DNA of 17,330 bases from Ignavibacteriales bacterium (lineage in GTDB: Bacteria; Bacteroidota; Ignavibacteria; Ignavibacteriales; Ignavibacteriaceae). The notes beneath the pieces are model-generated. The model was not told the DNA's origin and did not search any database. It saw only the letters and a program-made list of their open reading frames with translations. Where the stretch lies: positions 5,001-22,330 of the forward strand of contig JAGUXE010000010.1 in assembly GCA_020061995.1 (NCBI GenBank). The letters are read 5' to 3'. This document shows positions 2,628 to 16,107 of the stretch, piece after piece; positions within the stretch are counted from its first letter, which is position 1; each line of letters begins with the position of its first letter. The position numbers were made by a program, and so were the translations under genes.

Positions 2628-4070
2628 TTATTTTTCATTTTCATCTTCTGAGGGATATGTTACTTTCATCTCATAATTCCATTTATCAAAATATAAATTT
2701 CCTCCTCGCCATTCAACTTCGCCACGCTGGAAATCAATAGTTTCACTTCTAGGATAAATCTTTGCCGGGAAAAGAGGTTTTGCATAATCGTCATTGACAA
2801 TATATCTATAAGGATCAATTCCTGAAGCATAAAAATATTTCACCATATCATTACTACTCTCTTGAATTCCGAAATCAGGATCTACTGTAATCCACCCAAA
2901 TTCATCAAAATAAACTTCAGCCCAATCATGTAGATTAATTGAACCCGGATGCAGCATCCAACCACTTTGCCATTTTGCAGGTATTCCATTATATCGACAA
3001 AGGGTAATGAACAACAGAGATTTAATTCCGCAATCCCCATGCATATTTTCTAAACAATAATCCGTGATTGCATTTAATGTTGAATATTCTCGAGCACTTG
3101 CCCATGGAATATTTTCACCTATCCATTCCATTATTAATTTTAACTTTTTATAGTTATTAGTTTCACTACCAATAATGTTTTTAGAAATCTCTTTAATTTT
3201 GTCACTAAAATGAATATGAGGAAGTCTCTCTGAAGTGAATAATTTAAATACTTCAGAATTCTTTGAAATATTATATTCTTTATTATTTTCAAATCGTACA
3301 TACGAACCAAATCCTAAATACTCAAGTTCATAAGAAAAGATAGTTGGTTTATTTGGTTCTGCTACATGTTCAATATAAATGGTACTGTGAGAAAATTCGT
3401 TTTTACTTATTAAATAATCAGCACTATTAACTTCCATCAAATTGATGTTTTGATGTCTAATGTTATTTTGCCTCGGGAAAGGCAACCAACACCTAATCGT
3501 TTCACCTGCGGGTACAACGTCAGGTTTAACTTCGAGCTTATAGTTGATTCTGAATTTTACTGGTTTAAGTAATCGTCTTTTGGTGATTTCGTATTCTTGC
3601 AAAAGTAAAGAGATATGTAGAGACAAGAAATCGGTAAGTTTATTCTCACTGATTCCATCAACTCTCTGTTTAACTTTCTTTGCATCTTTATCTATTCGGA
3701 AAAGATTAGGGATAGCATTCTTGAAATATCGTTTCTCCCCGTTAATCAATTTCACTTCTAGTGCTTTTGATGCTTCCCATGAATCAATCATTTCGACGGT
3801 GAGATGAGGATAATATTTTTTCAATTGATTAAAGATGTAACTCTGGTTTCTTGTGAAATCCTTTTCTATTCGATCCATCAAATCTTTCTTAAAAAAAAGT
3901 TCATTCTTCTCTAATTCTGTAAGATTTGAAAAACCGATTAAAGAATCTATAATCATACTCGCATTATTATGATTCCCGGCATCAATTTCTTTATGTAAGT
4001 CGGTAAATTTCTGTTGACTGTAGAAAGCTGTTTGCATCATTAGAATTGCAATTATTACTATTTTCTTCAT
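2628..4070 (-). CDS. Exported transglutaminase-like (TGc) domain protein
   Basis: A 480-residue protein with a short signal peptide (MKKIVIIAILMMQTAFYSQ). It has an uncharacterised N-terminal region to about 165, a beta-rich segment at about 171-252, and a transglutaminase-core domain at about 290-405. The papain-like triad is visible: Cys347 in GDCGIKS, His381 in LHDWAEVYF and Asp397 in VDPDFG, with the usual motif spacing. Bacterial transglutaminase-like proteins of this kind act as cysteine peptidases or amide hydrolases rather than true crosslinkers, so a periplasmic or surface peptidase/amidase is the best reading. It follows the KdsC-like gene by 13 bases and precedes the barrel gene by 27, within the envelope operon. 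No clear Shine-Dalgarno sequence precedes the ATG. Domain assignment is strong; the substrate is unknown. Confidence 0.85.
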   Translation of the reverse strand: MKKIVIIAILMMQTAFYSQQKFTDLHKEIDAGNHNNASMIIDSLIGFSNLTELEKNELFFKKDLMDRIEKDFTRNQSYIFNQLKKYYPHLTVEMIDSWEASKALEVKLINGEKRYFKNAIPNLFRIDKDAKKVKQRVDGISENKLTDFLSLHISLLLQEYEITKRRLLKPVKFRINYKLEVKPDVVPAGETIRCWLPFPRQNNIRHQNINLMEVNSADYLISKNEFSHSTIYIEHVAEPNKPTIFSYELEYLGFGSYVRFENNKEYNISKNSEVFKLFTSERLPHIHFSDKIKEISKNIIGSETNNYKKLKLIMEWIGENIPWASAREYSTLNAITDYCLENMHGDCGIKSLLFITLCRYNGIPAKWQSGWMLHPGSINLHDWAEVYFDEFGWITVDPDFGIQESSNDMVKYFYASGIDPYRYIVNDDYAKPLFPAKIYPRSETIDFQRGEVEWRGGNLYFDKWNYEMKVTYPSEDENEK

Positions 4071-4983: not shown

Positions 4984-5829
4984 ATGAAAAAATTTACTCT
5001 CATCATGTTTTCCTTAATAATTTTATTAACCATGCAAGTTTCAGCCCAATGGATTAACAAATGGAATTCAGAGCCTATAAGTTATACCACAATAACAGGA
5101 TGGTTCAATTTCGTAAAAACTGAGAATGGTTGGAATCAACGCTTCTATTACCTTGACTCTCTCAAATTTATAGTCTATGCTGATCACTTCTCGCAAAATC
5201 CTCAGTATACTTATAATTTTACTGCGCCAGAAATACTAGCCGGACAACAACTATATTCAATAGCGCATGATGTTACGGGTGATGGTATTACAGAATTTTA
5301 CATCCTCAGTTGGTATGGGAATTCTTCTGAATACCGTCAGGGTTTCAAGATATTAGATATTACAACAAACACCGCCATCTTCGAAAAGAATGCTGCAAAT
5401 GCTTACTACTCTTACCCATCATTTTCTGATGTTGATGGTGATGGAATTATTGAATGTTATTTCATAAAATACCCTTATCCTTTCGACGGGACCTATACTT
5501 ATGAAGTTTATACAACTAACACAACAGGATTAAATAATAATGACCGGCCAATTCGATTTGAATTAAAACAGAATTTTCCTAATCCGTTTAATCCATCAAC
5601 TAAAATTGAATTCTCTCTGGAAAGAGGGGAGAATGTCCGTTTAGAAATTTTTGATATTACAGGAAGAAGTGTTACAACCTTAGTTAATGAGTTTAAGAAC
5701 TCCGGGAATCATTCAGTTATTTGGGACGGTAAAGACTCTCAAAATTTTTCTCAACCAACCGGGGTTTATTTTTATAGGCTTAACATTTCAAATCGTTCAG
5801 AAAACAGGAAAATGATAATTCTTAAATAG
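4984..5829 (+). CDS. Secreted protein with Por/T9SS-type C-terminal sorting domain
   Basis: A 281-residue exported protein with signal peptide MKKFTLIMFSLIILLTMQVSAQ, a central domain of unknown fold and a C-terminal sorting domain (about 192-281). The tail begins with QNFPNPFNPSTKIEF and contains LEIFDITGRSV, then GVYFYRLN, and ends in KMIILK. This is the architecture of type IX secretion (TIGR04183-like) substrates, in the wording typical of Ignavibacteria. The central part has two acidic loop motifs, DVTGDGITE (96-104) and DVDGDGIIE (149-157), resembling FG-GAP/VCBS calcium-binding repeats and spaced about 53 residues apart. It is therefore probably delivered to the cell surface or medium. 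The ribosome site is weak (AAAGA). It lies 114 bases upstream of the PqqD-like gene, so it may or may not share that transcript. The specific role is unknown. Confidence 0.85.
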   Translation: MKKFTLIMFSLIILLTMQVSAQWINKWNSEPISYTTITGWFNFVKTENGWNQRFYYLDSLKFIVYADHFSQNPQYTYNFTAPEILAGQQLYSIAHDVTGDGITEFYILSWYGNSSEYRQGFKILDITTNTAIFEKNAANAYYSYPSFSDVDGDGIIECYFIKYPYPFDGTYTYEVYTTNTTGLNNNDRPIRFELKQNFPNPFNPSTKIEFSLERGENVRLEIFDITGRSVTTLVNEFKNSGNHSVIWDGKDSQNFSQPTGVYFYRLNISNRSENRKMIILK

Positions 5830-5943: not shown

Positions 5944-6198
5944 ATGAATACTTTTAATGTTCCACCAAATGTCGCAGTAAGCGATACAGGATTTGTGTTT
6001 CTCCCGACTACCGGGGAAACATTTACACTAAACGAAATTGGTAAGGAAATTTTTAAGCAGCTTCAACAAGGTAAAAGCTACGATGAAATTGTTGAAATAA
6101 TTTTGTCATTCTATGATATTGATAAAAATTCTTTGGAAAAAGATTTTAATGATTTTGTTATGCAATTAAAAAACTATTCTTTAGTAGTTGAATTATGA
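5944..6198 (+). CDS. PqqD-like RiPP-recognition (RRE) protein
   Basis: Small 84-residue protein matching the PqqD family fold (winged helix), whose members bind leader peptides and present them to modifying enzymes. The pattern is clear: a beta-rich start (VAVSDTGFVFLPTTGETFTLN), the LNEIGKEIFKQL helix (29-40), GKSYDEIVEIIL (43-54), then FYDIDKNSLEKDFNDFVMQLKNYSLV, equivalent to the 'Y-D-h...D-h..Fh..L...gLh' end of PqqD. A strong AAGGAG (5934-5939) precedes the ATG by four bases, so this is probably the first gene of its operon. Its stop overlaps the ATP-grasp start (ATGA, 6195-6198), which implies coupled translation. No pqqA, pqqE or other PQQ genes are nearby, so a PQQ role is unlikely. 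The likely partner is a leader-like sequence elsewhere, possibly the decarboxylase N-terminus. Confidence 0.85.
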   Translation: MNTFNVPPNVAVSDTGFVFLPTTGETFTLNEIGKEIFKQLQQGKSYDEIVEIILSFYDIDKNSLEKDFNDFVMQLKNYSLVVEL

Positions 6199-7229
6199 AC
6201 ATAGCTGTAACCGGTTTAAATGCCACCGACAACCCTGGACCCGGTATTCCGGTAATCAGAAGTATAAAAGCTCATCCTGAATTTAAAGGCAATATTATCG
6301 GGTTAATTTATGACTCGCTTGAGCCGGGAATTTATATGGAAGATATGGCTAATAAATGCTATTTAATTCCATATCCTTCAACCGGTCTCGAAATGTTATT
6401 TGAACGTATTTCTGCAATACATGAAAAAGAGAAAATCGATCTTATTATTCCAACCCTAGATTCAGAGCTTTATGGTTTTGCGAAACTAAAGGATCGGTTT
6501 ACTGAAATTGGTATCAAAACTTTTTTACCTACTATCGGACAACTAAACATTAGAGCAAAGGATAATCTTTTTGACTTTTGCACTTCGCATGAAATAAAAG
6601 TTCCGAAAAATATTCTTCTAACATCATCCAACGACATCTACAATATTCCTAAAGATTTTAAATATCCTGTTGTTGTGAAAGGAATTTTTTATGATGCATA
6701 CATTGCCAATAATTTCGATGAAGTTAAAACTGCTTTTCACAAAATGAGTGCTAAATGGGGTTATCCGATAATTGTACAGGAGTATATAAAAGGAACAGAA
6801 TTCAATGTTGTTGCTCTCGGAGATGGAACTGGAGAAACAGTTGGCGCAGTCCCGATGAAAAAACTTTATATAACTGATAAAGGAAAAGGTTGGGCCGGAA
6901 TTACGATTGATGATCCAAATTTATTAAATCTTTCAAAAAAAATAATTTCCAAAACTAAATGGAAAAGTGGATTAGAACTTGAGTTTATGAAATCAGAAGA
7001 TACAAACGAATATTATCTGCTAGAAATAAATCCCCGTTTCCCCGCTTGGGTTTATCTTGCTCCGAATGCGGGGCAAAACCTTCCATACGCTTTGGTTCAG
7101 TTAGCAATGGGAGAAAATGTAAAACCGTTCGAACAATATACTGTAGGGATAGTATTTGTGCGTGCCGCATGGGACTTGATTACAAACTTAAAAGCTTTTG
7201 AAAAAATTGCAATCCAAGGAGAAATTTAA
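6195..7229 (+). CDS. ATP-grasp ligase (PylC / carbamoyl-phosphate synthase-like)
   Basis: A 344-residue ATP-grasp protein expected to activate a carboxylate as acyl-phosphate and join it to an amine. The N-terminal Rossmann-like domain begins MNIAVTGLNATDNPGPGIPV, resembling PylC and CPSase-like ligases. The ATP-grasp domain follows with KYPVVVKG (156-163; ATP-binding Lys), VQEYIKGTEFNVVAL (194-208), the acidic LELEF (260-264) and the metal-binding LLEINPRFP (275-283). The C-terminal 55 residues complete the lid. It overlaps the PqqD-like stop by four bases, and its own stop overlaps the decarboxylase start (TAATG at 7227-7231). Overlap on both sides argues for a stoichiometric, functionally linked trio. 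PylC joins D-ornithine to lysine; a similar amino-acid or amine ligation is inferred here. Substrates cannot be read from the sequence. Confidence 0.87.
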   Translation: MNIAVTGLNATDNPGPGIPVIRSIKAHPEFKGNIIGLIYDSLEPGIYMEDMANKCYLIPYPSTGLEMLFERISAIHEKEKIDLIIPTLDSELYGFAKLKDRFTEIGIKTFLPTIGQLNIRAKDNLFDFCTSHEIKVPKNILLTSSNDIYNIPKDFKYPVVVKGIFYDAYIANNFDEVKTAFHKMSAKWGYPIIVQEYIKGTEFNVVALGDGTGETVGAVPMKKLYITDKGKGWAGITIDDPNLLNLSKKIISKTKWKSGLELEFMKSEDTNEYYLLEINPRFPAWVYLAPNAGQNLPYALVQLAMGENVKPFEQYTVGIVFVRAAWDLITNLKAFEKIAIQGEI

Positions 7230-8584
7230 TGGATACGAAAAAACGATATGAACGCCCGGTAATTACAAAACACTATTCAGGTTTTATGAATAAGATCGGA
7301 ACAAGTTCATTCTCAAAACCCAAAAAAGATATTGATGGTATAGCCGTTAATGATTTAGTTGAGAAATTCGGTTCCCCTTTGTTTGTAATTTCTGAAAAGA
7401 AAATTAGACTAAACCAGAGGAACGCATTACGCATTTTCAAAACACGTTATCCAAAAGTTCAGTTCGCATGGTCGTATAAAACAAACTATTTAAATGCAGT
7501 TTGTTCTGTATTCCATCAGGAAAATTCATGGGCAGAAGTTGTATCTGAATTTGAATATGACAAAGCCCGCAAACTTGGTATCAAAGGAGCGAATATTATA
7601 TTCAATGGTCCTGATAAAAGTCGCAAAGCTCTCTTGAAAGCCATTAATGAAAAAGCAAAAATTCACATTGATCATTTTGATGAACTTTATGAAATTATAG
7701 AACTATGTGATACCGAAAAACTTAAAGCTAAAGTTGCAATAAGAATCAACATGGATGTTGGTGTTTATCCAAAATGGGATCGGTTCGGATTCAATTATGA
7801 AAACGGTGAAGCTTGGCAAGCAATAAAAAGAATTGTCACTAATAAAAACTTAGAACTGATTGGACTTCATACACATATTGGAACATATATGATGTCAACA
7901 GAAGCTTATCGAATTGCTGCTTCAAAATTAGCTGGTCTCGCCAAAAGTATTAAAGAACAATTCGATATAATTCTAGAATACATTGATCTTGGTGGCGGTT
8001 TTGCTTCGCACAATACTCTACTTGGACAATATTTGCCCGCTGAAGAAGTCATTCCTTCAATTGAGCAATTCGCTGATGCTATTTCATCCGGTTTATTTGA
8101 ATTAAACTTTAAAAACGATGACTTACCTTTGCTAATTTTGGAAACAGGTAGAGCATTGATTGATGATGCTGGCTTTTTAATTTCAAGTGTATTGGCTAAT
8201 AAACGTCTATCAGATGGTAAAAAAGCTTTAATAATTGATGCCGGTGTGAATATCTTGTTCACCGGATTTTGGTACAAACACAAAATTACACCGGCACAAG
8301 ATTGCGGAATTCATACGGAAGAATCAGCTATATTCGGTCCTTTGTGCATGAATATTGATGTTGTTAGAGAAAGCATTACTCTTCCTCTTCTAAAAAAGGG
8401 AGATAAAATTGTCATCGAGTATGTTGGTGCTTATGACATGACTCAATGGATGCAGTTTATAACATTGAGGCCAAATGTTGTTATGATAATGGAAGATGGA
8501 TCAGTTGAATTAATTAGGAAATCAGAAACACTTGATTATATAACTGATGTTGAATTGCTTCCTGAAAAACTCTCGTTAAAGTAA
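7229..8584 (+). CDS. Fold-III PLP-dependent decarboxylase, DapDC-like, with leader-like N-terminus
   Basis: A 451-residue alanine-racemase-fold decarboxylase related to diaminopimelate, arginine and carboxynorspermidine decarboxylases. The PLP lysine is K84 in FAWSYKTN. The barrel carries LHTHIGTYM (213-221, equivalent to HIGSQ), the phosphate-binding DLGGGF (253-258) and LETGRAL (304-310, in place of EPGR). The C-terminal barrel has IFGPLCMNIDVV (368-379) with conserved Cys373 and EYVGAYDMTQW (397-407). In true LysA the segment after that Cys is usually ESGD; here it is MNID, so lysine synthesis is unlikely to be its job. Residues 1-36 precede the normal LysA start (about IAVNDLVEKFGSPLFV) and hold YERPVI (7-12), like the YxxPxL motif of lasso-peptide leaders. 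The start overlaps the ATP-grasp stop. Family is firm, substrate unknown. Confidence 0.88.
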   Translation: MDTKKRYERPVITKHYSGFMNKIGTSSFSKPKKDIDGIAVNDLVEKFGSPLFVISEKKIRLNQRNALRIFKTRYPKVQFAWSYKTNYLNAVCSVFHQENSWAEVVSEFEYDKARKLGIKGANIIFNGPDKSRKALLKAINEKAKIHIDHFDELYEIIELCDTEKLKAKVAIRINMDVGVYPKWDRFGFNYENGEAWQAIKRIVTNKNLELIGLHTHIGTYMMSTEAYRIAASKLAGLAKSIKEQFDIILEYIDLGGGFASHNTLLGQYLPAEEVIPSIEQFADAISSGLFELNFKNDDLPLLILETGRALIDDAGFLISSVLANKRLSDGKKALIIDAGVNILFTGFWYKHKITPAQDCGIHTEESAIFGPLCMNIDVVRESITLPLLKKGDKIVIEYVGAYDMTQWMQFITLRPNVVMIMEDGSVELIRKSETLDYITDVELLPEKLSLK

Positions 8585-8602
8585 AAAGAAATTGAGATTA
8601 TA

Positions 8603-10780
8603 TTGAAACTTCATGCATTATTGAGCGAATCAAGTTTAATGTTTATTGATTCAATCCTTTACTCATATGCCCAAATATTTTTTTCGAACAGGCGATGGCT
8701 GGGGGCATTGATTCTCGCAGTAACTATGTTTTTTCCTTTAGTCGGTTTAATGGGTCTGCTTGGTGTGACTATCGCCAATATTACTGCAGCAATTCTAAAG
8801 TTCGACCAGGCGAAAATTCGAAGCGGATTTTATGGATTTAATGGAATATTATTTGGAGTGGCTGCAGGTTATTATTATGAATTAAGTTTTTTCATGATTT
8901 TAATAATACCTGTATTTCTGATTATTACTTTTTTCATCTCAGCTGTGCTAGAACATTATTTGGCTGTTGCATTTAATCTTCCCGGATTAAGTTTACCTTT
9001 TATTTTTTCTTTATACATCTTTATAATATTCCTAACAAACTACGGGGATATTAAAATTCATCATTTAAGTTTTCCATATGATAACTTGTTAGCAAGTTTC
9101 CCGATATTTATTAAAAATTATTTCAAATCTTTAGCACTCATAGTGTTCCAACCTAGTGTTTTTGCAGGCATTATTTTGTCAATAGGTATACTTATTTTCT
9201 CCAGAATTCTCTTTGTGCTGAGTATAGTCAGTTATAGCTTATCAGCAATTTTGTTAACAATTATTTTACCAGTTCAAACGGATCAATTAGCTATACTTGT
9301 TGGTTTTAATGCAATTCTAACAGCCTTTGCATTAGGTGGTGTATTAATACTACCTTCACCAAAAAGTTTTTTTCTAATGGTAATTTCGACACTAATTGTT
9401 GTAATCTTTACAGGATTTTTTCACAAGTTGTTGACTGGAACTCTTCTGCCACTTTTAGTGCTTCCATTTAATTTCATTGTTCTTTTCACAATCTATAGTT
9501 TGAAATTCAGAAAAGAACAAAGTGAGTTAGACTTATTATACTTTACACCCGGTTCACCTGAGGAGAATCTTTATTACCATCAAAACAGAAAAAACCGTTT
9601 TGATAGATTTAAATATTTCTATCCAGAGCTTCCCTTTTTCGGTGAATGGTTCGTTTCTCAAGGATTTGAAGGTGCTTATACTCATAAAAATGCATGGAAG
9701 TATGCTTGGGACTTTGTTGTTATAGACGAGAAGAAATCCCAATTCTCCAACGAGGGAAATCAACTCACCGATTACTACTGTTACAAACTCCCCGTTTCAT
9801 CACCTCTCGACGGAAAAGTTGTAAAAGTTGCAAGTTCAATTCCGAATAATGAAGTAGGTGATGTTAATCTTGATAAAAATTGGGGAAACACTGTAATAAT
9901 TGACCATGGTGAAGGTCTTTTTAGTGCTGCCTCACATTTGGATTCTGATTCTATTAAACTTAAAGAGAATGATTATATTCTCAAAGGTGATGTTATTGGT
10001 CTATGCGGTAATAGCGGACGCTCTCCATATCCCCACATCCATTTTCAATACCAATTGACTGATAAAATTGGAGACAAGACTTATCGTTTTCCTTTTGCTC
10101 ATTTTATTGAAAAGAGAGAGGATAAACTTATTGCTAAAAGTTTTGATTATCCGAAGGAGAATAGCATAATTCAGAATATTGTTGTTCACAAAACAATAAA
10201 AAAAGCATTTGGATTAAGGTTAGGTGATAAAATAACACTTCAATGTTCGGTTAATGAAAATTCATTCACGGAAGAATGGGAAGTGAAAGTAGATATTTAC
10301 AATATGCTCTACATAGAAAATGACCAAAAAGAAACAGCATATATTTATTTAACAGATAAAGTTTTTTACTTTTCCCACTATTTGGGAAGTAAAAAATCTG
10401 CGCTATACTATTTCTTTCTTTTAGCATATCAAGTTCCACTATGCTATCATGCCAATCTTGAATGGAAGGATCAATATTCACTTTCACAATTAAACGGTAC
10501 ATCAATAAGGTATCTGACTGAATTTTTACTTTCGTTTAAGAATTTTATTCATGCTGAAGGAAATTTCAAGTATTTAGAAAGAGATGAACATAGTGAATCA
10601 TTTATTATCGAAAACAAAATTGAATTAAAGGGAAATGGGATTCTATCCTCACTAAATAAGACCATGTCTGGTCAAATTAAAATCAGTGACGATGGGAAAA
10701 TTGATTCGTTTCAATTCTCAAGTAAACACAACTATAAATTCAACGCTACTTTAACAAGTAATAACGGAGATTTATCATGA
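8603..10780 (+). CDS. Urea-transporter-like membrane domain fused to M23 metallopeptidase
   Basis: A 725-residue fusion. Residues about 30-300 are a polytopic membrane domain resembling urea transporters (UT family), with the paired repeats SGFYGFNGILFGVAAG (74-89) and LVGFNAILTAFALG (232-245) and the LPGLSLPF selectivity-type segment (126-133). Residues about 345-505 are a LytM/M23 zinc endopeptidase domain: His361 and Asp370 in THKNAWKYAWDF, SHL (444-446), then CGNSGRSPYPHIHF with HIH (478-480). Spacing H-x8-D differs from the classic H-x3-D but the second motif is complete. Residues about 505-725 form an unassigned soluble C-terminal domain. The start is a TTG with GAG seven bases upstream; an internal ATG at 8639 is an alternative that keeps all domains. 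It follows the decarboxylase by 18 bases and overlaps the TPR gene by four. A transporter with a periplasmic wall-cutting or sensing domain is inferred. Confidence 0.84.
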   Translation: MKLHALLSESSLMFIDSILYSYAQIFFSNRRWLGALILAVTMFFPLVGLMGLLGVTIANITAAILKFDQAKIRSGFYGFNGILFGVAAGYYYELSFFMILIIPVFLIITFFISAVLEHYLAVAFNLPGLSLPFIFSLYIFIIFLTNYGDIKIHHLSFPYDNLLASFPIFIKNYFKSLALIVFQPSVFAGIILSIGILIFSRILFVLSIVSYSLSAILLTIILPVQTDQLAILVGFNAILTAFALGGVLILPSPKSFFLMVISTLIVVIFTGFFHKLLTGTLLPLLVLPFNFIVLFTIYSLKFRKEQSELDLLYFTPGSPEENLYYHQNRKNRFDRFKYFYPELPFFGEWFVSQGFEGAYTHKNAWKYAWDFVVIDEKKSQFSNEGNQLTDYYCYKLPVSSPLDGKVVKVASSIPNNEVGDVNLDKNWGNTVIIDHGEGLFSAASHLDSDSIKLKENDYILKGDVIGLCGNSGRSPYPHIHFQYQLTDKIGDKTYRFPFAHFIEKREDKLIAKSFDYPKENSIIQNIVVHKTIKKAFGLRLGDKITLQCSVNENSFTEEWEVKVDIYNMLYIENDQKETAYIYLTDKVFYFSHYLGSKKSALYYFFLLAYQVPLCYHANLEWKDQYSLSQLNGTSIRYLTEFLLSFKNFIHAEGNFKYLERDEHSESFIIENKIELKGNGILSSLNKTMSGQIKISDDGKIDSFQFSSKHNYKFNATLTSNNGDLS

Positions 10781-11412
10781 AGAATTATATTATTACCGGA
10801 TTATTAACTACAACTATTATTATGCTTTTTTTTGTTACCCAGCTTTTATCTCAACAAAAAGACAGTCGTATCTCCGCTTTTAATTCATCTGTTAAATATG
10901 AGTTAAAAGGTGATTATAAAAATGCTTTATCAGAGCTGCAAAAAATTTATTCTGAAAATAAAAATAATTACTTAATTAATTTAAGGTTAGGTTGGCTATA
11001 TTACTCATCGAAAGAGTATAACAAATCGTTTGAGTTTTATAGTGCGGCTGCTAAATTAAATCCCGAAAGTGTTGAAGCAAAAATTGGATTAACTTACCCA
11101 CTCTCTTCCATGGGAAAATGGAATGATATTGTTGACATCTACAAAAACATTCTTAAGGTGGAGAATAATAATTATACTGCCAATTTAAGATTGGGGCAGA
11201 TTTATTTAGAACGATTTGATTATCCGACTGCAAAAAAATACCTCGAAAAAGTGCAAACACTTTATCCGGGCGAGTTTGAACCTAATTTATCACTCGGATA
11301 TACTTATTATTATCTCGGTAATAATCAAAAAGCAAAAGAACTCTTTACATACGCATTAATGCTGGATGAAAATAATGCATTAGCTTCAGCAGGTTTAAAA
11401 TTAGTAAAATAG
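10777..11412 (+). CDS. Exported TPR-repeat protein
   Basis: A 211-residue protein with an N-terminal signal peptide or anchor (MKNYIITGLLTTTIIMLFFVTQLLSQQ), then about four to five tetratricopeptide repeats filling the rest. Units begin near SAFNSSVKYELKGDYKNALSE (34 on), LINLRLGWLYYSSKEYNKSFEFY (65 on), AKIGLTYPLSSMGKWNDIVDIY, TANLRLGQIYLERFDYPTAKKYL and PNLSLGYTYYYLGNNQKAKELF, each about 34 residues apart. It therefore acts in the periplasm as a scaffold. The ATG lies inside the preceding stop (ATGA, 10777-10780), indicating translational coupling to the UT-M23 fusion. The barrel gene follows by 25 bases. A TPR plus a barrel recalls the two halves of YaiO or PgaA-like outer-membrane export proteins, here as separate genes. 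Confidence 0.83.
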   Translation: MKNYIITGLLTTTIIMLFFVTQLLSQQKDSRISAFNSSVKYELKGDYKNALSELQKIYSENKNNYLINLRLGWLYYSSKEYNKSFEFYSAAAKLNPESVEAKIGLTYPLSSMGKWNDIVDIYKNILKVENNNYTANLRLGQIYLERFDYPTAKKYLEKVQTLYPGEFEPNLSLGYTYYYLGNNQKAKELFTYALMLDENNALASAGLKLVK

Positions 11413-11437
11413 AATTCATTTTTCCGAGGTAAACATT

Positions 11438-12271
11438 TTGAGACTTCTTGTTTTCATTTGCTTAATGTTGAGTCTATTTAGTAAAATATCATTTGCTGAT
11501 TCAACATTTATCGCCCCTTCATATTTTTTAACTTATGGTGATTATTCGAATAAATCTTATTCGATTTCCAATTCTTTCTATCTCTCCACATATCTGACTA
11601 ATCGAATCACCTTAATAAATCATTATGAATACTTAAATATTAAGCTTGGTAAGGATTCTACTTTTCGCCAGCATACTCTTCTCGGTGGGACAATAATAAA
11701 TTGGTTCCCTTACTACTTTAAATTTTATTACAGTTATAAGCGAGGTGACTATCTTGTTGATAACAATCAGTTTTATTCAGATCATACAAACATTTACTCA
11801 TTTGAAACAGTTTATTATCAAAATCTTTTTTATTTGGGGTTGAGTTATTCTTTTGAAAATGCAATCGGGATTTTAAACACAAATAATCTTACCCATCAAC
11901 AAATTCACCAGTTAACAGGTAGAATTGATTATATTTATTCTCCCTCACTTTATTTATCTGTCCGGCCTAATTTCAGTTCATTAAAGGATGGACGTGAGTT
12001 ATATTCGCTCTCCGGAAAGATCACATATTTTCCAATTATCACTACTTCAATTAAAGTCTATGGATTTTATGGTGAGCGTGCCTACTATTTCGACAACGAT
12101 CTTTTGACTTTATTCAATCAAGATGAAACACAAAAATATCAAGCCGGAGTTCAAATAGACTACTATCCTTCATATTATTTGCTTTTTTCTGCCGGAGTTC
12201 AGCATACGAAGTTTCAAACAATTAGTATAAATTATTTTGTTGCAGGTATCCGTTACGGTCTCTTTATTTAA
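11438..12271 (+). CDS. Outer-membrane beta-barrel protein, YaiO-like
   Basis: A 277-residue protein with a signal peptide (MRLLVFICLMLSLFSKISFAD) and an aromatic-rich, alternating strand pattern throughout, e.g. RITLINHYEYLNIKLG, YYFKFYYSYKRGDY, LFYLGLSYSFENAIG and YYLLFSAGVQHTKF. It ends in a last strand (YFVAGIRYGLFI) suited to Bam recognition. Tyrosine and phenylalanine content is very high. The pattern and its pairing with the upstream TPR gene resemble the barrel half of YaiO-family proteins. The start is TTG, supported by GAGG (11426-11429) eight bases upstream. It is the last gene of the tight cluster and is followed by small dyad-symmetric sequences before anmK. It may be the outer-membrane exit for whatever the cluster makes; this is inference. 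Confidence 0.72.
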   Translation: MRLLVFICLMLSLFSKISFADSTFIAPSYFLTYGDYSNKSYSISNSFYLSTYLTNRITLINHYEYLNIKLGKDSTFRQHTLLGGTIINWFPYYFKFYYSYKRGDYLVDNNQFYSDHTNIYSFETVYYQNLFYLGLSYSFENAIGILNTNNLTHQQIHQLTGRIDYIYSPSLYLSVRPNFSSLKDGRELYSLSGKITYFPIITTSIKVYGFYGERAYYFDNDLLTLFNQDETQKYQAGVQIDYYPSYYLLFSAGVQHTKFQTISINYFVAGIRYGLFI

Positions 12272-12314: not shown

Positions 12315-12317
12315 GAT

Positions 12318-13511
12318 ATGAATATTGAAGCCCTTTACAAATTAAGTAGAAAAAATAAAAAGAGAATAATCGGATTAATGTCAGGCACCTCCCTTGATGG
12401 TATAGATGTTGTCCTGATTGAAGTAAAAGGAAATGGTTTAACTACTAAGATTAAACAACGTGCATTTGATACTTTTCCCATTCCTGAAAAATTAAGAGAG
12501 ATGATTCACCATAATGCCGAGTTCAAAGGCGGAAATGTTACTGAATTATGTCAACTCAATTTCATGATAGCCCATCTTTATGCAGATTGTATAATTAAAT
12601 TCTTAAGAAAGTTAAATCTCAAATCATCCAATATTGATTTAATTGGAACACACGGGCAAACCATTCAACATCTACCCAAAAAAGAAAAAATTTTTGGTAT
12701 AAACTCAGCTTCAACATTACAGATTGGCGATCCATCAGTACTAGCAAAGCTAACAGGAATATTAACAATTGGTGATTTCAGAGTTGCTGACGTTGCTTTA
12801 GGCGGACAAGGTGCACCACTTGTCCCTTACTTTGATTACATCCTTTACACATCAAAAACAAAAAACCGTGCTTTACTGAATATCGGAGGAATCTCAAATA
12901 TAACTTCGCTCCCAAAAAATGTTAATCTTACCAACATCGCAGCATTTGACACAGGTCCGGGAAATATGTTAATCGATCAAGTCGTTAAAAGGTATTTTAA
13001 CAAACCATTTGATTATAATGGAAAACTTGCATCAAAAGGAAAAGTTAATTCAACACTATTAGAGAGTCTTTTAAAATCTGATCAATTTACAAAAACTAAA
13101 CCGCCGAAATCATCAGGGCGTGAATATTACGGTAAATATTTTCTGCCTCCATTTTATGAACAAATGGATAAACTGAACAAGTATGATGTAGTTTCAACTA
13201 TTACTTACTATACTTCAAAAACTATTTATTACAATTATGAGAAATTCATCAAGAAGAATTCTCTATTAACCGAACTATTTGTTAGTGGCGGCGGAGCTCT
13301 TAATCAAACACTTTTAAAGTACTTGCAGTCACTTTTTGGATACTCTGTATCAGTGAAGACCAGTGATTTTATTGGTATATCTATTGAAGCAAAAGAAGCT
13401 ATCTGTTTTGCCGTATTAGCAAATGAGACACTAAGTGGAAATGGAGCAAATGTAGTTACTGTAACCGGGGCTTCAAAGCCGACAATATTGGGAAAAATAT
13501 GTCTGCCTTAA
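12318..13511 (+). CDS. anmK: Anhydro-N-acetylmuramic acid kinase (AnmK)
   Basis: Phosphorylates and opens 1,6-anhydro-N-acetylmuramic acid to MurNAc-6-phosphate in the cytoplasm, part of peptidoglycan recycling. From this ATG the protein has 397 residues, close to the family norm. Signatures are IIGLMSGTSLDGIDVVLIE (17-35), GTHGQTIQHLP, the long conserved block DFRVADVALGGQGAPLVPYFD, LLNIGGISNITSLP, FDTGPGNMLID, GREYYGKYF, ELFVSGGGALN and a C-terminus with KEAICFAVLA and TGASKPTILGKI. An in-frame TTG at 12282 would add twelve residues (MIFWFSINNQND), but it has no ribosome site and does not resemble family N-termini, so ATG 12318 is preferred. The gene overlaps the following reductase by 13 bases. 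Its neighbours include an M23 domain and a DUF1460 enzyme, both cell-wall turnover proteins. Confidence 0.95.
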   Translation: MNIEALYKLSRKNKKRIIGLMSGTSLDGIDVVLIEVKGNGLTTKIKQRAFDTFPIPEKLREMIHHNAEFKGGNVTELCQLNFMIAHLYADCIIKFLRKLNLKSSNIDLIGTHGQTIQHLPKKEKIFGINSASTLQIGDPSVLAKLTGILTIGDFRVADVALGGQGAPLVPYFDYILYTSKTKNRALLNIGGISNITSLPKNVNLTNIAAFDTGPGNMLIDQVVKRYFNKPFDYNGKLASKGKVNSTLLESLLKSDQFTKTKPPKSSGREYYGKYFLPPFYEQMDKLNKYDVVSTITYYTSKTIYYNYEKFIKKNSLLTELFVSGGGALNQTLLKYLQSLFGYSVSVKTSDFIGISIEAKEAICFAVLANETLSGNGANVVTVTGASKPTILGKICLP

Positions 13512-15261: not shown

Positions 15262-16107
15262 CTACGGTTCTAAAGTTCGCAGAACAATAATTCCTGTATG
15301 CTTTTTAATTTTTAAAAGATACTTATGTAAAGTTGTATCAGTAATTTGTACCTTTGAACCTACTAATGGAGCATGCATGAAGTGAATATCTCCATTATTC
15401 ATTCTTACAGCTATTCCAACGTGAGAAATATCTAGACCATTCAGATTAGTTGTTATTGCTATTAAATCACCATTCTCAATCTTATTTTCAATTTTATTAA
15501 CCTCTGCTTTAGGGATATAATAATACTGCCGCAAGTTAATTTCTTTTTCTTGTGAAGCTATAACCGGAATAAATGATGGATTAGATTTAAGCATTTTATA
15601 AGAATCGGGATTTTTCGACATATAACCGACTTTAAACTTTATCTCCTTACCACCGATTTCCTTTGTAACATCCTTAATAATACCCTTTGATGAATTATAA
15701 AAAATCCAATCTGAAAAATAATGAAGACGTGATGGATAACCTTCAATAATTCCTTTACGATATCGTATAAAAGTTAATTCATTCTGATAATCTTCGAAAG
15801 AAGTTTTTCCCTTTTTTACAGAACGTGCAAATGTAAGCGAGGTTTCAAGAAAAGTAGTGCAATCCAAACCTGTTAAATTGATTGCCAACTCTTCATCCCC
15901 TTTAGTTTCAAGGGTGTGAGCCACATAATCTGTATTAAGAAAAGTTTTGCCAACTTCAGTAACAAGTTCTCCAATTTTTAAATTATCCAATTTCTTATCG
16001 ATAACCAGTTGAAATTTTGAATTACAAATTTTAACATCTTTTTCAGAAAATACTTGTCCAAATGAAATGGTTGTAATAATAAGGAGTAAATAAATAATAT
16101 TTTTCAT
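15262..16107 (-). CDS. Exported DUF1460 N-acetylmuramoyl-L-alanine amidase-like protein
   Basis: A 281-residue exported member of the DUF1460 (PF07313) family, an NlpC/P60-like cysteine peptidase/amidase group acting on peptidoglycan fragments. A signal peptide is seen (MKNIIYLLLIITTISFGQ). The nucleophile is Cys83 in TGLDCTTFLETSLTFAR, the family hallmark. The catalytic His229 lies in DISHVGIAV, and HFMHAP (242-247) supplies further active-site histidine(s). The middle region (IEGYPSRLHYFSDWI) is also typical of the family. Its ATG overlaps the dnaB stop by four bases (16104-16107), so translation is coupled to dnaB, an unexpected pairing of wall hydrolase and helicase. It probably trims anhydro-muropeptides in the periplasm, upstream of AnmK recycling; this link is inferred. 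Confidence 0.87.
   Translation of the reverse strand: MKNIIYLLLIITTISFGQVFSEKDVKICNSKFQLVIDKKLDNLKIGELVTEVGKTFLNTDYVAHTLETKGDEELAINLTGLDCTTFLETSLTFARSVKKGKTSFEDYQNELTFIRYRKGIIEGYPSRLHYFSDWIFYNSSKGIIKDVTKEIGGKEIKFKVGYMSKNPDSYKMLKSNPSFIPVIASQEKEINLRQYYYIPKAEVNKIENKIENGDLIAITTNLNGLDISHVGIAVRMNNGDIHFMHAPLVGSKVQITDTTLHKYLLKIKKHTGIIVLRTLEP

What the first reader, a model, noticed from the sequence alone, without database searches (positions are those of the whole stretch)
5944..12271. Six-gene PqqD / ATP-grasp / PLP-decarboxylase / UT-M23 / TPR / barrel cluster
Six plus-strand genes with overlaps of 4, 1 and 4 bases and gaps of only 18 and 25 encode a leader-recognition protein, a ligase, a decarboxylase, a transporter-peptidase fusion, a periplasmic scaffold and an outer-membrane barrel. 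Nothing in standard PQQ, lasso-peptide or pyrrolysine pathways has this set. The order suggests a route from cytoplasmic synthesis (decarboxylate an amino acid, ligate the amine or acid) through the inner membrane and periplasm to the surface. Gene calls are seen in the sequence; the pathway reading is inference.
Basis: partly seen in the sequence, partly recalled or inferred. Interest (0 to 1): 0.75.

Follow-up and report, generated by a model that had tools for sequence, protein, structure and literature searches.

The report
Peptide-tagged decarboxylase operon in Bacteroidota
Bacteria related to Ignavibacterium carry a conserved but apparently undescribed operon in which a small adaptor protein, known from peptide-antibiotic factories, seems to grip a tag on a metabolic enzyme instead of a peptide, next to genes that look like a route through the cell envelope.

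Summary
The cluster is real. In a phylum sample the decarboxylase (DC) and a UT-M23 protein occur in the same 33 of 395 genomes. Of 124 loci, 120 hold PqqD, ATP-grasp, DC and UT-M23, all 120 on one strand in one order; in three of the other four, UT-M23 lies elsewhere in the genome. The DC carries an N-terminal tail with [YF]xxPx[IVL] in 36 of 36 loci, the motif that lasso-peptide RREs (PqqD-like proteins) recognise; 0 of 20 paralogues read carry the tail. DC residue 7 covaries with PqqD residue 67, which by my alignment is the Asp that binds the leader Tyr in a solved RRE complex: Tyr/Asp 110, Phe/non-Asp 12, no exception, rank 1 of 37,716 column pairs. So PqqD most likely docks on the DC itself, not on a RiPP precursor. 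The DC is FigC/FslC-like, suggesting that ligation precedes decarboxylation. UT-M23 has a third, tentatively LolA-like domain. Substrate and product are unknown; export is inference. The Tyr-to-Phe switch needs at most three events on the tree, so the covariation rests on few changes.

The parts
5944..6198 (+). PqqD-family RRE, 84 aa; predicted leader-contact residues N30, Y57, D67, F71, L75, L80
   Evidence: Pfam PF05402 E 5.8e-13; nearest solved relatives TbiB1 5v1u/5v1v E 4.8e-11 and TfuB1 6jx3 E 1.1e-6; N30 in 123/123, D67 in 111/123, F71 in 109/123 loci
6195..7229 (+). ATP-grasp ligase, 344 aa (CPSase-like; substrates unknown)
   Evidence: 50 residues invariant over 36 loci, incl. K162, E261, E263, E277, N279, R281
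7229..8584 (+). alanine-racemase-fold PLP decarboxylase, FigC/FslC-like, 451 aa
   Evidence: K84, C373 and M374 invariant in 36/36
7238..7300 (+). DC residues 4-24: RRE-type tail KKRYERPVITKHYSGFMNKIG (YxxPxI docking motif plus a second conserved block with K22)
   Evidence: 36/36 loci; 235/240 homologues, the 5 others start inside the tail; absent in 20/20 paralogues read; covariation with PqqD D67
8603..10780 (+). three-domain membrane protein: urea-transporter fold (about 1-335), M23/LytM peptidase (about 337-500), C-terminal beta domain (about 505-717, tentatively LolA-like)
   Evidence: (pLDDT 87.5); M23 ligands H361, D370, H445, H478, H480 in 36/36 loci
10777..11412 (+). TPR protein with N-terminal signal or anchor (read from sequence)
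   Evidence: present in 33/36 loci
11438..12271 (+). putative outer-membrane beta-barrel with signal peptide (inferred from sequence, not modelled)
   Evidence: no Pfam/NCBIfam match above cut-off; related protein in 18/36 loci, a different TPR-barrel gene in 11/36
4984..5829 (+). T9SS-sorted secreted 281-aa protein, lineage-specific companion
   Evidence: Por_Secre_tail; relative scoring 293 bits or more in 14/36 loci, within 170 bp upstream of PqqD in 12 of them; 3-nt gap in L002

Best explanation
The operon encodes a small-molecule pathway organised by an RRE that binds an enzyme. PqqD (the RRE) grips the YxxP-type tail on the N-terminus of the decarboxylase (well supported; about 0.9). By doing so it probably holds the ATP-grasp ligase and the decarboxylase in one complex, so that the ligase product is passed to the decarboxylase: the ligase joins an amino acid to another group, and the FigC-like decarboxylase then removes the carboxylate of the capped amino acid, giving an amine (inferred; about 0.5). 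UT-M23 works with this trio (supported by co-occurrence; about 0.8); the product, or a conjugate of it, is probably handed to the envelope proteins: the urea-transporter-fold domain as inner-membrane passage, the M23 domain to open peptidoglycan locally, the tentatively LolA-like domain and TPR protein as periplasmic carrier or scaffold, and the barrel as outer-membrane exit or anchor (inferred; about 0.45, raised from 0.4). Substrate and product are not known.
For: Docking: tail motif in 36/36 loci and 235/240 homologues, absent from 20/20 paralogues read; in 36 loci no other ORF carries the motif recurrently, and in 33 genomes a DNA pattern for it hits 18 cluster DCs and 35 other places, against 44 for the reversed-pattern control. 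Lasso RREs recognise [Y/W]xxPx[L/V/I/F/A] (PMC13381572, passages); PqqD's closest solved relatives are lasso B1 RREs. Published LppB contacts N33, Y60, D70, F74, M78, L83 (passages) map at a constant offset to N30, Y57, D67, F71, L75, L80. Tail Tyr/PqqD Asp67 110, Phe/Ser 7, Phe/Tyr 4, Phe/His 1, no exception, rank 1 of 37,716 pairs by two measures. Ligate-then-decarboxylate: DC scores 239 bits to N-citrylornithine decarboxylase against 161 to DAP decarboxylase; Met beside the catalytic Cys in 36/36, as in FigC, where the substrate side-chain amine is capped (PMC7857480 section 8); clade members act on capped or carrier-bound amino acids (section 14). Unit. Fusion domains.
Confidence: 0.5

Rival explanations
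1. The decarboxylase is itself a RiPP-like substrate or carrier: PqqD presents its tail to the ATP-grasp enzyme, which attaches an amino acid to the tail, probably at the near-invariant Lys22, and the catalytic domain decarboxylates the tethered amino acid (carrier logic as in butirosin BtrI/BtrK; the BtrJ ligase step is recalled).
For: K22 in 122 of 123 tails and a conserved second block SG.MNKFG after the docking motif; conservation then drops in residues 25-34, as in a flexible arm; BtrK, which decarboxylates a carrier-bound glutamate, is a relative.
Against: L225 has Gln at position 22 with all four genes present; nothing shows modification; an arm of about 12 residues may be too short to reach the active site.
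Confidence: 0.2
2. PqqD and the tail regulate the decarboxylase (chaperone, oligomer or activity switch) rather than channel a substrate.
For: Binding is supported, its purpose is not.
Against: The PqqD gene overlaps the ATP-grasp gene by 4 bases in 21 of 36 loci, and PqqD distances track those of the ligase (r 0.78) as much as those of the DC (r 0.79).
Confidence: 0.15
3. An ordinary RiPP pathway whose short precursor lies elsewhere; the DC tail is a coincidence or mimic.
For: PqqD-like RRE plus ATP-grasp is one of the usual RiPP signatures (ATP-grasp is among the RiPP identifiers used in PMC12710340, passage).
Against: No recurrent motif-bearing small ORF among 7,649 ORFs of 36 loci; no excess in 33 whole genomes (a pattern that finds only 18 of 34 DCs); gaps inside the operon of the window are 25 bases or less; tail-RRE covariation.
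Confidence: 0.07
4. Unrelated housekeeping genes (lysine synthesis, urea uptake, wall hydrolase) that happen to be neighbours.
For: Database names are diaminopimelate decarboxylase, alanine racemase and urea transporter.
Against: Same 33 of 395 genomes, 120/120 collinear; separate LysA-like paralogues score at most 149 bits against 560-952 for cluster DCs.
Confidence: 0.02

Closest known systems
Discrete lasso-peptide RREs (TbiB1, TfuB1/FusB1) and LppB with YxxP leaders
   Same: PqqD family, mostly the same predicted contact residues, same YxxPx[ILV] motif
   Different: The motif sits on a 451-aa PLP enzyme with conserved catalytic residues, not on a short precursor; no lasso cyclase or leader peptidase among the 17 window proteins scanned
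FigC/FslC N-citrylornithine decarboxylase (7kh2), with SbnH, AcsE, MccE, BtrK
   Same: Closest solved sequence; C-M-[NQ]-x-D active-site loop; lacks the Asp that binds a free side-chain amine
   Different: Citrate-facing H357 and R387 of FigC align with I376 and Q406 here, invariant in 36/36 (own mapping), so citrate is unlikely; partner is an ATP-grasp enzyme, not a NIS synthetase; extra RRE tail
Butirosin BtrJ/BtrI/BtrK (BtrJ as ATP-grasp ligase recalled; BtrK activity)
   Same: ATP-grasp ligase plus AR-fold decarboxylase acting in sequence
   Different: No acyl carrier protein found among the window proteins scanned; PqqD instead
Bacterial urea transporter dvUT (3k3f)
   Different: Fused to M23 and a third domain; the dvUT Glu of GEVMF aligns with position 179 (Ala 15, Leu 13, Glu 0 of 36), the signature Thr with position 130 (Ser 33 of 36) and 286 (Val 19, Thr 3 of 36); roles of these residues in urea binding recalled

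Membership tests
RRE (PqqD-like) | PF05402 match above cut-off and homology to solved leader-binding RREs | tested here: met
   49.4 bits against cut-off 23.4; TbiB1 E 4.8e-11
RRE (PqqD-like) | binds a leader-type peptide | not testable with these tools
   only covariation and motif evidence
Lasso-peptide cluster | lasso cyclase (Asn-synthetase-like) and leader peptidase beside the RRE | tested here: not met
   none among 17 window proteins scanned against Pfam; the nearby Transglut_core protein is on the other strand and its N-terminus looks like a signal peptide
Lasso-peptide / other YxxP RiPP cluster | short precursor peptide with YxxP leader | tested here: not met
   no recurrent candidate in 36 loci
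PQQ biosynthesis | PqqA, PqqC and radical-SAM PqqE neighbours | tested here: not met
   none among 17 window proteins scanned (PqqA-sized ORFs were not scanned); PQQ_PqqD equivalog score 16.9 against cut-off 46
Pyrrolysine (PylC) | PylC-type ligase with PylB/PylD | tested here: not met
   only the PylC-like N-terminal domain matches, 29.5 bits, cut-off 27; no PylB/PylD among scanned window proteins
FigC/FslC-type decarboxylase | best match to FigC; Met beside catalytic Cys | tested here: met
FigC/FslC equivalog | NCBIfam NF041039 curated score | tested here: not met
   236.8 bits against cut-off 500
Diaminopimelate decarboxylase | TIGR01048 curated score; CES-type loop | tested here: not met
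   213.5 against 297.9; CMNID or CMQID loop in 36/36
Urea transporter | UT fold | tested here: met
Urea transporter | urea conduction | not testable with these tools
   filter residues partly replaced; TIGR03441 110.7 against cut-off 274.6
M23/LytM peptidase | H...D and HxH zinc ligands | tested here: met
LolA-like carrier | LolA fold of the C-terminal domain | tested here: inconclusive

The most novel reading that the evidence does not exclude
The decarboxylase is an enzyme that carries its own RiPP-style leader and works as its own substrate carrier: the RRE presents its tail to an ATP-grasp ligase, an amino acid is loaded onto the tail (Lys22), decarboxylated in place, and released to a UT-M23-LolA-like trans-envelope exporter. 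This would be a biosynthetic logic between RiPP and carrier-protein chemistry.
Probability: 0.15. Interest if true: 0.95.

Novelty: new variant of a known kind. Interest (0 to 1): 0.74.

Why it matters
RREs are used as markers of peptide natural products. Here one travels with an enzyme that wears the leader motif, so RRE-leader recognition appears to have been reused as a docking device in a non-peptide pathway (or the enzyme is itself the modified protein). That would change how PqqD-family genes are read in genome mining, explain some 'orphan' RREs in Bacteroidota, and give a directly testable pair of residues (Tyr7, Asp67). It also suggests that a large group of proteins filed as diaminopimelate decarboxylase, alanine racemase and urea transporter is misnamed. 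Ignavibacterium album, named in the database for one DC homologue (P0073), would be a species to start with; its gene neighbourhood was not examined here.

Tried and rejected
Whole genome of the window: not held. Paper searches with these term sets found no paper on the cluster: urea transporter/M23/ATP-grasp/PqqD/decarboxylase 0; urea transporter/M23/fusion/Bacteroidetes 0; PqqD/decarboxylase/ATP-grasp 1, a lanthipeptide review seen in the listing only; urea transporter/peptidase M23 0; RRE client terms 1, RRE-Finder; BtrJ/BtrK/decarboxylase 0; Ignavibacterium/PqqD 0. The library holds open-licence PMC papers only, so this is weak evidence of absence. Passages of PMC12710340, PMC7470986 and PMC10352776 were searched for decarboxylase and ATP-grasp without finding this system. 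NCBIfam scan of eight DC tails: no lasso-leader model matched; two weak tryglysin_RiPP hits, E 0.07 and 0.12, below cut-off. Tail profile against PDB: no leader chain found, one unrelated hit at E 1.2. Promoter/terminator scan: 44 promoter-like sites against 39.2 (sd 6.6) and 1 terminator-like against 3.5 (sd 2.0) in shuffles; not used. Rfam: none. C-terminal domain modelled alone: low confidence.

A claim I dropped on checking: I first read L165 and L211 as systems without UT-M23. Their genomes do hold a full-length UT-M23 on another contig, as does the genome of L233, whose contig ends beside the DC.

Dropped rows: G558 and G433 (partial DC matches) were not fetched. L226 (contig end, no PqqD) and L241 (failed the script's tail regex) are not in the 122; read by eye L241 is Tyr with Asp, and L226 has a Phe tail but no PqqD to test. 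In one search a cruder tail regex misread L066, L201, L214, L216, L221 and L225; one search replaces it. L072-L075 (stand-alone or broken UT genes without PqqD, ATP-grasp or DC) were left out of the 36-locus set. Three of the 23 paralogue matches were not read; in two of the 20 read a looser regex hit the catalytic-domain GSP/GTP segment, not a tail. Loci come from even draws of a phylum and two classes plus window and L001-L003, not from all genomes.
Full report
What is there. The window is Ignavibacteria-like: a syntenic MAG contig (L001) encodes 89-95% identical UT-M23, ATP-grasp, PqqD and DC proteins. Families: PqqD, ATP-grasp, alanine-racemase-fold PLP decarboxylase, urea-transporter/M23 fusion, TPR, and an unclassified secreted protein that I take for a barrel.

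Is it a unit? UT-M23 searched in 395 genomes of the phylum of G001 gave matches covering both UT and M23 in 33 genomes (in G008 as two ORFs; in G258 without the C-terminal domain); the DC at E 1e-100 gave the same 33 and no other (sets compared by eye). At E 0.001 the UT-M23 profile also finds lone M23 or UT proteins, in 367 of 395 genomes. In window, L001-L003 and 32 further loci, PqqD, ATP-grasp and DC lie on one strand in one order, followed by UT-M23. In L070 the best PqqD match is weak (43 bits) and 1.9 kb away; in L071 UT and M23 are separate ORFs. With 88 more loci from two classes (73 of 395 and 42 of 245 genomes positive at E 1e-120), 120 of 124 loci hold all four genes and 120 of 120 keep the order. 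Of the other four, L226 lost PqqD at a contig end, and L165, L211 and L233 lack UT-M23 in the stretch fetched, but their genomes each hold a full-length UT-M23 on another contig. So each of the 124 loci fetched has UT-M23 beside it or in its genome. Pairwise identities of the five proteins PqqD, ATP-grasp, DC, UT-M23 and TPR are correlated over 33 loci (r 0.78-0.94; permutation p 0.001 for each pair). Neighbours shared by 8 or more of 36 loci are only these genes, the two barrel types and T9SS-tailed proteins (that BLAST grouping joined 29 of the 36 PqqD, which the profile finds in 36). TPR is in 33 of 36. The T9SS protein is next to PqqD in 12 of 36 loci, so it is lineage-specific.

The tail. 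Residues 4-24 of the DC (KKRYERPVITKHYSGFMNKIG in the window) lie before the catalytic domain and are conserved across loci whose DCs share as little as 46% identity, while residues 25-34 are mostly not. The motif is [YF]-E-[RKS]-P-x-[IVL] in 35 of 36; L066 has YTKPVL. Of 240 homologues from two protein searches 235 have it and 5 start inside the tail. In the same 33 genomes, the 34 cluster DC matches begin at profile position 1-4, whereas 23 paralogue matches begin at position 15 or later; of 20 paralogue N-termini read, none has the tail. Passages of PMC13381572 state that discrete lasso RREs recognise [Y/W]xxPx[L/V/I/F/A] and list the LppB contacts, among them N33, Y60, D70 (hydrogen bond to the leader Tyr), F74, M78 and L83. 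At a constant offset of three these fall on PqqD N30, Y57, D67, F71, L75 and L80, whose window residue is found in 123, 109, 111, 109, 116 and 96 of 123 loci (the offset is my alignment, anchored on the N...Y...D...F...L spacing). Not every contact fits: LppB V63 falls on position 60, mostly Asp or Glu here. PqqD's nearest solved relatives are TbiB1 and TfuB1, solved with their leaders (PMC13381572).

Covariation. In 36 loci, PqqD column 67 was the only one whose residues are disjoint between Tyr-tail and Phe-tail loci. I then fetched 88 loci not used to form the idea: all seven new Phe-tail loci with a PqqD have Ser at 67, and the Tyr-tail loci have Asp. In all, Tyr/Asp 110, Phe/Ser 7, Phe/Tyr 4, Phe/His 1, n = 122, no exception; the pair ranks first of 37,716 PqqD-DC column pairs by MI-APC and by MI over joint entropy. 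A Tyr that loses its hydroxyl together with the Asp that would bind it is what direct contact predicts. Caution: on the catalytic-domain tree both traits need three changes, and well-supported branches force only one, so the number of independent events is one to three, the sign test there cannot reach significance, and rank 1 is not a p-value.

No precursor peptide. Among 7,649 ORFs of 20 aa or more in 36 loci the motif recurs only in the DC. A DNA pattern for KKx[YF]ExP over 33 genomes hits 18 of 34 cluster DCs and 35 other sites; the reversed control gives 44 (sums mine). A divergent precursor could escape both.

Chemistry. The DC is closest to FigC/FslC (239 bits; DAP decarboxylase 161; BtrK 125). 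[quoted passage not shown] The present DCs have Met there in 36 of 36. FigC's citrate-facing H357 and R387 align with I376 and Q406, both invariant in 36 (mapping mine), so the cap is probably not citrate. I infer: ligase first, decarboxylase second. I did not build a tree with FigC, so clade-2 membership is by similarity only.

How likely. PqqD binds the DC tail: about 0.9. It scaffolds ligase and DC: about 0.5. Ligation precedes decarboxylation: about 0.5. UT-M23 works with the trio: about 0.8. UT-M23 and the barrel export the product: about 0.45 (raised from 0.4 when searches showed that UT-M23 stays in the genome where the operon is split). The tail is itself modified: about 0.15-0.2. Product identity: unknown.

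Spread. Named homologues are Bacteroidota in the wide sense (Ignavibacteria, Melioribacteraceae, Chlorobiaceae, Bacteroidales, Sphingobacteriales, Ferruginibacter), plus MAGs labelled Desulfobulbaceae that I take for misbinned (only the best 120 of each search are listed). Of 8,000 DC candidates scored, 7,973 pass E 1e-100, and of 7,996 UT-M23 candidates 802 pass 1e-20, a set that may include partial matches. Other phyla were not sampled as genomes.

Noticed in passing
window 4984-5829: T9SS-sorted 281-aa protein with an FG-GAP-like stretch directly upstream of the operon; in L002 only 3 bases before PqqD. Possible surface partner or target of the product.
   Followed up: partly
L165:590-3560, L211:2592-5328: PqqD/ATP-grasp/DC trio without an adjacent UT-M23; the UT-M23 gene sits on another contig of the same genome, so the operon can split while both halves are kept.
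   Followed up: yes
L071:7944-10198: UT and M23 halves are separate overlapping ORFs; natural split or frameshift.
   Followed up: no
L225 (DC tail): Only tail of 123 with Gln instead of Lys at position 22; bears on the carrier model.
   Followed up: no
window 8603-10780: Relatives are named 'urea transporter' in databases although filter residues of the second repeat are changed; probable misannotation.
   Followed up: partly
window 12315-13511, 15262-16107: Anhydro-MurNAc kinase follows the operon and an AmiA-like amidase lies further on; AnmK is not among the families shared by 4 or more of 36 loci, so probably chance.
   Followed up: partly
window 2628-4070: Secreted-looking transglutaminase-like protein upstream on the other strand, shared by 7 of 36 loci only.
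   Followed up: no
G127:C1: Identical-scoring DC copies near both ends of the contig, probably an overlapping circular assembly end.
   Followed up: no
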